From: Ferruginibacter lapsinanis
GTDB taxonomy: Bacteria; Bacteroidota; Bacteroidia; Chitinophagales; Chitinophagaceae
Direction: 5' to 3'
DNA length: 64,000 bases
Assembly (NCBI RefSeq): GCF_020783315.1
Contig: NZ_CP086063.1
Location: 1,662,501-1,726,500 of the forward strand
Positions within the stretch are counted from its first letter, which is position 1; the number at the start of each line of letters is the position of its first letter. The notes under the pieces were generated by a model. The model was not told the DNA's origin. It saw only the letters and a program-made list of their open reading frames with translations, and did not search any database. The position numbers and the translations under genes are program-made. Shown one piece after another: positions 27,488 through 29,549 of this stretch.

Positions 27488-27516
27488 ATAGGTGCAGGAT
27501 GAAGTCCTGCACCTAT
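27488..27516. repeat. REP-like perfect hairpin
   Basis: ATAGGTGCAGGA and TCCTGCACCTAT form a 12-bp perfect stem around TGAAG. No T run follows on either strand, so it looks like a dispersed palindromic element rather than a terminator. It sits about 100 bp from the PQQ gene's start side. Confidence 0.65.
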
Positions 27517-27618
27517 ACATTACTAAATTAATGACTAAAGTGATGATACTTTAGTAACTCCCCGGCCGCAGGAAAGAGTCTTGCGCCTACCGGAGACGCT
27601 TCCATATAATGTAGATTT

Positions 27619-28164
27619 CTTGCTTTGGGTTGTGGGAGGCTTTCTACCTAATGTAGATTTGTTGCTTTGTGTTGTGGGAAGCTTTCTACCTGATGTAGAT
27701 ATGTTGCTTTAAGTTCTGGGAAACTTTCTACCTAATGTAGATGCGTTGCTTTGGGTTGTGGGAAGCTTTCTACCTGATGTAGATTTGTTGCTTTGGGTTG
27801 TGGGAAGCTTTCTACCTAATGTAGATTTGTTGCTTTGGGTTGTGGGAAGCTTTCTACCTAATGTAGATTTGTTGCTTTGAGTTGTGGGAAGCTTTCTACC
27901 TAATGTAGATATGTTGCTTTGTGTTGTGGGAGGCTTTCCGCTATAAGCGGATGTGTTGCTTTGGGTTGTGGGAAGCTTTCCGCTATAGGCGGATGAGTTG
28001 CTTTGAGTTGTGGGAAGCTTTCCGCAATAGGCGGATGTGTTGCTTTGGGTTGTGGGAAGCTTTCCGCTATAAGCGGATGTGTTGCTTTGAGTTGTGGGAA
28101 GGTTTCCGCTATAAGCGGATGTGTTGCTTTGGGTTGTGGGAAGCTTTCCGCTATAGGCAGATGT
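27619..28164. repeat. 42-bp tandem repeat array, 13 units in two blocks
   Basis: Thirteen contiguous 42-bp units, plus a partial at the left (27595-27618) and a degenerate one at the right (28165-about 28206). Each starts GTTGCTTTGGGTTGTGGGAA, then AGCTTT, then a hairpin. Units 1-7 (27619-27912) carry TCTAC...GTAGA; units 8-13 (27913-28164) carry TCCGC...GCGGA. Two base pairs change in both arms, so pairing is kept. On the minus strand the unit reads as 14 residues (TTQSN-x-S then variable then K-L-P), open from 28215 to 27709 with no signal peptide or recognisable fold. Other frames are also open, so coding is doubtful. Confidence 0.92.
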
Positions 28165-28305
28165 GCTGTTTTGGGTTACAGGAAGCTTTCCGAGACCCAA
28201 GGTAAGTGTCATCACTGATCGACGATGAGTGGGGGAGTACCAAACAAGGTTAAAGCCCCGCCGGGATGGAATTTATTATGATCTTTTTTAGATGTATTTA
28301 CTTCG

Positions 28306-29423: not shown

Positions 29424-29549
29424 TTGCCCATTGCTCATTGCTCATTGCCCATTGCCTATTGCTCATTGCCTATTGCTCATTGCCTATTGCTCATTGCCTA
29501 TTGCTCATTGCCCATTGCCCATTGCCCATTGCCCATTGCCCACAGCCCC
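29424..29549. repeat. 7-bp tandem repeat, 18 units, upstream of rpsF
   Basis: Eighteen uninterrupted units of TTGCCCA, TTGCTCA or TTGCCTA. The middle section alternates CTCA and CCTA, giving a 14-bp higher-order period; the last six or so units are uniform CCCA. The array ends about 45 bp before the -7 box of the ribosomal-protein operon. Frames read through it on the plus strand are artefacts. The remaining gene-free DNA around it (29143-29662) otherwise holds only the promoters and inverted repeat listed separately. Confidence 0.93.

What the first reader, a model, noticed from the sequence alone, without database searches (positions are those of the whole stretch)
27619..28164. 42-bp tandem array in which both arms of an internal hairpin switch together
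Seen: units 1-7 hold TCTAC...GTAGA and units 8-13 hold TCCGC...GCGGA, so two base pairs change in both arms (T-A to C-G and A-T to G-C) while the rest of the unit stays the same. On the minus strand this swap alters four of 14 residues, so it preserves base pairing at the cost of any encoded peptide. That argues for selection on, or copying by way of, a DNA or RNA hairpin. There are no spacers, so it is not CRISPR.
Basis: seen in the sequence. Interest (0 to 1): 0.6.

Follow-up and report, generated by a model that had tools for sequence, protein, structure and literature searches.

The report
Species-specific hairpin minisatellite with two modules
A bacterium carries three intergenic runs of a 42-letter repeat, each copy holding a small hairpin of one of two kinds; they look like an ordinary self-spreading spacer repeat whose hairpins are exchanged as whole blocks, with no shown RNA or protein function.

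Summary
The array is real: 14 units of exactly 42 bp at window 27599-28186. One is a decayed 5' edge unit, 7 carry TCTAC-loop-GTAGA and 6 carry TCCGC-loop-GCGGA (the last has one broken pair). The statement that only two base pairs change is wrong: the loop changes too (4 of 5 letters), so 8 of the 11 letters between the constant outer pairs differ. This is a block swap of a whole hairpin, a single historical event with two changed pairs, which would stay paired by chance about once in nine times.

The genome has two more arrays (9 and 15 units, all + strand). One shares both edges and the same TAC-to-CGC order, so it is a paralogous copy, not an independent switch. An unrelated family of 41-42-bp hairpin arrays occurs at 8 other loci; several of its arrays also switch hairpin type in blocks. 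No counterpart was found in 92 same-genus or 295 same-family genomes, phages, plasmids, viral contigs or GTDB contigs.

Folding is not strand-specific, stems are not significantly more constant than the rest, and the minus-strand ORF shows no sign of coding. Best reading: a lineage-specific, BOX-like hairpin minisatellite. Selection on an RNA or DNA hairpin is possible but not shown.

The parts
27599..27640 (+). Decayed 5' edge unit (TCCATATAATGTAGA), the same in array C
27641..27934 (+). Seven TAC-type units: TCTAC-CT[A/G]AT-GTAGA plus a 27-bp constant part
27935..28186 (+). Six CGC-type units: TCCGC-TATA[A/G] (once AATAG)-GCGGA; the last has GGCAGA (broken pair) and the variant GTTACAGG, and the matching last units of arrays A and C have GTTGCAGG
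27592..28270 (+). Duplicated element shared with array C: 5' edge GGAGACGCTTCCATATAATGTAGAT, array, and about 80-90 bp 3' flank ending CCCCGCCGGGA
   Evidence: 88% identity over 91 bp of the 3' flank; alignments of both edges
28197..28222 (+). Small 3'-flank hairpin region (GTAAGTG-TCAT-CACTGATC); in array C GTCGGTG-TCGT-CACCGATC, so one pair changed on both sides and one pair was gained or lost
   Evidence: alignment; pairing read by eye
27709..28215 (-). 168-aa GTG-started ORF through the array, judged non-coding

Best explanation
The array is a lineage-specific, non-coding hairpin minisatellite, one of three copies in this chromosome. Each 42-bp unit is a constant ~27-bp stretch plus a ~15-bp hairpin module. 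Units are gained and lost in tandem by recombination or replication slippage, and whole arrays have been copied to new intergenic sites. Two hairpin modules (TAC and CGC) exist. They were joined once in a mosaic array by exchange within the shared constant stretch, or by one multi-nucleotide replacement, and the joined array was then duplicated. So both arms change together because the hairpin moves as a block. That the modules are palindromic at all is best explained by DNA-level palindrome-restoring copying (template switching between inverted-repeat arms). If transcribed from neighbouring genes, the array would form a folded untranslated stretch, as in pneumococcal BOX elements. Shown: array anatomy, copy number, block order, paralogy of B and C, absence elsewhere. 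Inferred: exchange or template switching as the cause, and neutrality.
For: Three arrays only, all multi-unit, no solitary copies. B and C share both edges and the same TAC-to-CGC order and differ by gained or lost units; A is CGC-type ending in a TAC half-unit. The loop swaps with the arms. A second family of 41-42-bp hairpin arrays at 8 loci also has block changes of hairpin type inside arrays. In it the loop middles include three exactly inverted pairs (TCA/TGA, CAA/TTG, CGA/TCG); this is only suggestive: P=0.0006 with pooled letters but 0.11 with position-specific letters. Homogenised arms and inverted spacers are the recorded marks of template switching (PMC8604942; PMC8794818). Structure exceeds shuffles on both strands. 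Intergenic positions of the two hairpin families include co-directional, divergent and convergent neighbours. No array of this family in 92 genus and 295 family genomes.
Against: No template-switch event was caught, since no strain or sister species with the arrays is available. The loop-inversion test is not robust. The minus strand of the CGC type folds better than tandem shuffles (z=-4.5), which a purely neutral reading does not predict. All three F1 arrays lie upstream of a minus-strand gene and antisense to both neighbours.
Confidence: 0.6

Rival explanations
1. RNA hairpins under selection: the array is transcribed (most likely the minus strand, from flanking minus-strand genes) as a 5' or 3' untranslated region, and repeated hairpins protect, process or attenuate the message.
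For: All three F1 arrays sit between minus-strand genes, 44-210 bp upstream of a minus-strand ORF. The minus strand folds better than tandem shuffles (CGC z=-4.5, TAC z=-2.5). In the second family single-sided intermediates at the one covarying pair are T-G wobbles on the plus strand (3 of 3). BOX elements do this in part (PMC3049150).
Against: Structure is also strong on the plus strand against ordinary shuffles. The second family lies in convergent and divergent gaps too. Stems are not significantly more constant than the rest (p=0.12). No Rfam match. The element is absent from all relatives searched.
Confidence: 0.2
2. DNA site array: 42 bp is four helical turns, and the palindromes (hairpin arms, AAGCTT core) are bound on one face by a nucleoid or segregation protein, or extrude as cruciforms.
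For: Fixed 42-bp spacing in all 38 units, palindromes on both strands, and all three arrays in the same orientation relative to replication, mid right replichore (GC skew).
Against: Only three loci, not near origin (~0.95 Mb) or terminus (~2.65 Mb) by skew. The second family mixes 41 and 42 bp. No relative keeps it.
Confidence: 0.1
3. REP-like palindromes spread by the genome's single Y1 (IS200/IS605-type) transposase.
For: One Y1_Tnp gene is present (1324331-1324675, E=1e-21); TAC hairpins contain GTAG.
Against: The transposase is flanked by different palindromes. CGC hairpins lack GTAG. F1 has no solitary units or alternating orientations.
Confidence: 0.05
4. A repetitive protein encoded on the minus strand.
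For: One minus frame is open through both unit types in all three arrays (145, 168, 284 aa).
Against: N-termini unrelated, about a third of residues change between types, no clear third-position bias, no Pfam family above cut-off. BOX arrays also give such ORFs (PMC3049150).
Confidence: 0.03

Closest known systems
BOX elements of Streptococcus pneumoniae (boxA-boxB(n)-boxC; PMC3049150)
   Same: Intergenic, dispersed, short unit in variable tandem number, stem-loop forming, defined edges in two copies (B, C), long ORFs by default, no known mobilising enzyme
   Different: Three loci, not dozens; no sequence relation tested or expected; array A lacks the shared flanks; effect on expression not tested
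REP / BIME / REPIN palindromes and RAYT transposases (PMC3733652, PMC3116915)
   Same: Short extragenic palindromes, tandem clusters
   Different: No solitary copies, no alternating orientation, CGC units lack GTAG, transposase flanks differ
MIRU/VNTR minisatellites of mycobacteria (from memory)
   Same: Intergenic direct tandem repeats, tens of bp, several loci per genome
   Different: Hairpin module in every unit with two alternative sequences; strain variation untested
Second 41-42-bp hairpin-array family in the same genome (F2, found here)
   Same: Period, hairpin next to a G/C-rich AAGCTTTC-like stretch, block change of hairpin type
   Different: Sequence similarity to F1 not significant (10-21 of 200 shuffles as good)

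Membership tests
BOX-like modular repeat element | Tandem central modules between defined 5' and 3' end modules | tested here: inconclusive
   Arrays B and C share 5' edge and ~80-90 bp 3' flank; array A has neither
BOX-like modular repeat element | Dispersed intergenic copies with variable module number | tested here: met
   9, 14 and 15 units at three intergenic loci
BOX-like modular repeat element | Forms stem-loops as RNA and affects co-transcribed genes | not testable with these tools
   Folding better than shuffles on both strands; no expression data
BOX-like modular repeat element | Sequence homology to streptococcal boxA/B/C | not tested
   Only architecture compared
CRISPR array | Repeats separated by unique spacers | tested here: not met
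   Units abut at exactly 42 bp, no spacers
REP/REPIN mobilised by RAYT | GTAG tag at hairpin foot in all copies | tested here: not met
   TAC units end GTAGA, CGC units GCGGA
REP/REPIN mobilised by RAYT | Transposase gene flanked by the same palindrome | tested here: not met
   Only Y1_Tnp gene has different flanking palindromes
Structured RNA under selection | Repeated independent compensatory changes | tested here: inconclusive
   F1: 2 pairs, one event; F2: one pair with both-sided change, outer arms at chance level
Structured RNA under selection | Match to an Rfam family | tested here: not met
Protein-coding repeat | Frame conserved with synonymous bias | tested here: not met
   changes at codon positions 1/2/3 outside the hairpin 8/14/20, with two hot columns (19, 30) that no single frame makes silent; non-conservative residue changes between types

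The most novel reading that the evidence does not exclude
This chromosome carries at least two unrelated families of ~42-bp intergenic hairpin arrays in which complete hairpin modules are replaced while pairing is kept. It would be a bacterial case where template switching (arm homogenisation and loop inversion) drives covariation-like patterns that could be mistaken for RNA selection, or else a new class of tandem regulatory hairpins.
Probability: 0.2. Interest if true: 0.55.

Novelty: new member of a known kind. Interest (0 to 1): 0.3.

Why it matters
If the hairpin switch is a by-product of DNA copying, these arrays are a compact natural record of how palindromes keep both arms matched without RNA selection, and a warning against reading such 'covariation' as functional RNA. 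If selected, they would be a lineage-specific set of tandem regulatory hairpins. As it stands it is one more species-specific intergenic repeat family.

Tried and rejected
Coding on the minus strand (codon-position test, Pfam). CRISPR (no spacers). RAYT/REP. Rfam families (the one weak E=0.28 IRES hit is far below its gathering score). Homologues in family, genus, plasmids, phages, viral contigs and GTDB contigs (exact-pattern scans miss diverged relatives). Homology between F1 and F2 (not significant). Two further period-42/45 arrays (249 kb, 2687 kb) do not fold better than shuffles and were set aside. Strand preference by wobble type: too few events. Stem-specific constraint: not significant.

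Full report
What is there. The window lies at 1662501-1726500 of a single-contig 3,455,339-bp genome, with an LSU and 5S rRNA at its left end. TRF finds the array at 27607-28190, period 42, 13.9 copies. Split on the constant core, it has 14 units with spacing of exactly 42: a decayed edge unit (27599-27640), seven TAC units (27641-27934) and six CGC units (27935-28186). The core pattern has no matches in dinucleotide shuffles of the window.

The switch. Comparing consensus units, TAC is TTTCTACCTAATGTAGAT..., CGC is TTTCCGCTATAGGCGGAT.... Between the constant outer pairs the 11-letter stretch TACCTAATGTA versus CGCTATAAGCG differs at 8 positions, four of them in the loop. So it is not two compensating base pairs in an otherwise constant unit but the replacement of a whole hairpin. 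On 22 distinct units two pairs change on both sides and 97% of cells pair, but this is one event seen many times. With both sides changed at two pairs, chance keeps both Watson-Crick about once in nine (inference). Within a type, stems show 2 minority states in 350 cells, the constant part 17 in 875 (two hot columns left out), Fisher p=0.12; loops 20 in 175. Stem-specific constraint is therefore not demonstrated.

Other copies. The same genome has two more arrays on the same strand: A at about 1477.76-1478.15 kb, nine CGC-type units followed by a TAC half-unit; C at about 1806.03-1806.66 kb, a decayed edge unit, seven TAC and seven CGC units. B and C share their 5' edge and 88% of 91 bp of 3' flank, and unit order (for example the GATGCG unit, and the identical first CGC unit), so C is a paralogue. 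The last unit of all three carries a CAGG variant. No solitary units exist. By GC skew of sampled stretches the origin is near 0.95 Mb and the terminus near 2.65 Mb, so all three arrays are mid right replichore in the same orientation. All three lie between minus-strand ORFs.

A second family. Sampling the genome showed another family of 41-42-bp intergenic arrays (F2) at eight loci on both strands, with hairpins such as CTTTCGGTATCATACCGAAAG, CTTTCGGGTATTCCCGAAAC and CTTCCGGTACGATACCGGAAG. Several arrays hold a block of one hairpin type next to a block of another (3348 kb, 447 kb, 1445 kb, 2067 kb). The inner pairs are kept (one pair T-A to C-G with T-G intermediates, apical T-A to G-C), the outer arms are no better matched than after re-dealing (p=0.10). 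Loop middles contain three exact inverse pairs, which is unusual for pooled letters (P=0.0006) but not for position-specific letters (P=0.11), so suggestive only. F1 and F2 are not demonstrably homologous.

Structure. Against ordinary shuffles both strands of F1 and F2 arrays fold well (z -2.8 to -9.2), which tandem repetition inflates. Against shuffled units repeated in tandem F1 gives z -1.1 (plus) and -4.5 (minus) for CGC and -2.0 and -2.5 for TAC. A perfect 5-bp local hairpin arises in 1.8-3.2% of shuffled units. So the hairpin is probably not accidental, but no strand is singled out across families.

Coding. Only one minus frame is open in both types. The ORFs of the three arrays start in unrelated sequence, no family passes its cut-off, and variation does not clearly follow codon positions. 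Pneumococcal BOX arrays likewise produce ORFs on both strands (PMC3049150).

Distribution. No relative in 295 family genomes, 92 genus genomes, plasmids or phages, viral contigs, GTDB contigs; F2 is likewise private. TRF on 400 kb of one complete same-genus genome and 400 kb of ten others found no array of at least 2.5 copies with period 40-46.

Mechanism. The pattern fits a lineage-specific hairpin minisatellite that grows and shrinks in tandem, is copied as whole arrays, and exchanges whole hairpins through the shared constant stretch. Palindromy is plausibly restored by template switching, which homogenises arms and inverts spacers (PMC8604942; PMC8794818). Selection for an RNA hairpin remains possible, chiefly because the minus strand, the one that flanking genes would transcribe, folds best relative to tandem shuffles. 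The closest known kind by anatomy is the BOX element (PMC3049150); membership is not claimed.

Noticed in passing
29424-29542: 17 copies of the heptamer TTGCCCA just upstream of rpsF (29663); one of eleven same-genus loci (L065, upstream of rplI) has a different heptamer run (ATCCTGT) at the like place.
   Followed up: partly
27495-27596 and L011:7007-7115: A dispersed paired palindrome (GCAGGAC-GAGTCCTGCGCCTA type) borders array B and lies about 350 bp downstream of array C; seven matches in the genome.
   Followed up: partly
L061:6630-6792, L130:7960-8207, L114:7221-7439, L129:5952-6099, L120:14771-14963, L112:16927-17065, L118:6423-6565, L126:7015-7262: Second family of 41-42-bp intergenic hairpin arrays, with conserved flank TTTTCCCACT....GCCATTTT at about four loci and block changes of hairpin type.
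   Followed up: partly
L093:7029-7341 and L081:18909-19134: Two more intergenic tandem arrays (period 45 and 42) of unrelated sequence that do not fold better than shuffles.
   Followed up: partly
L151:1498-1950: The genome's only Y1 (IS200/IS605-type) transposase, flanked by its own palindromes (GAGCCCCGAAGGGGCGACATTT; GGCCCATAGGGCC), a possible REP/TIR system of its own.
   Followed up: no
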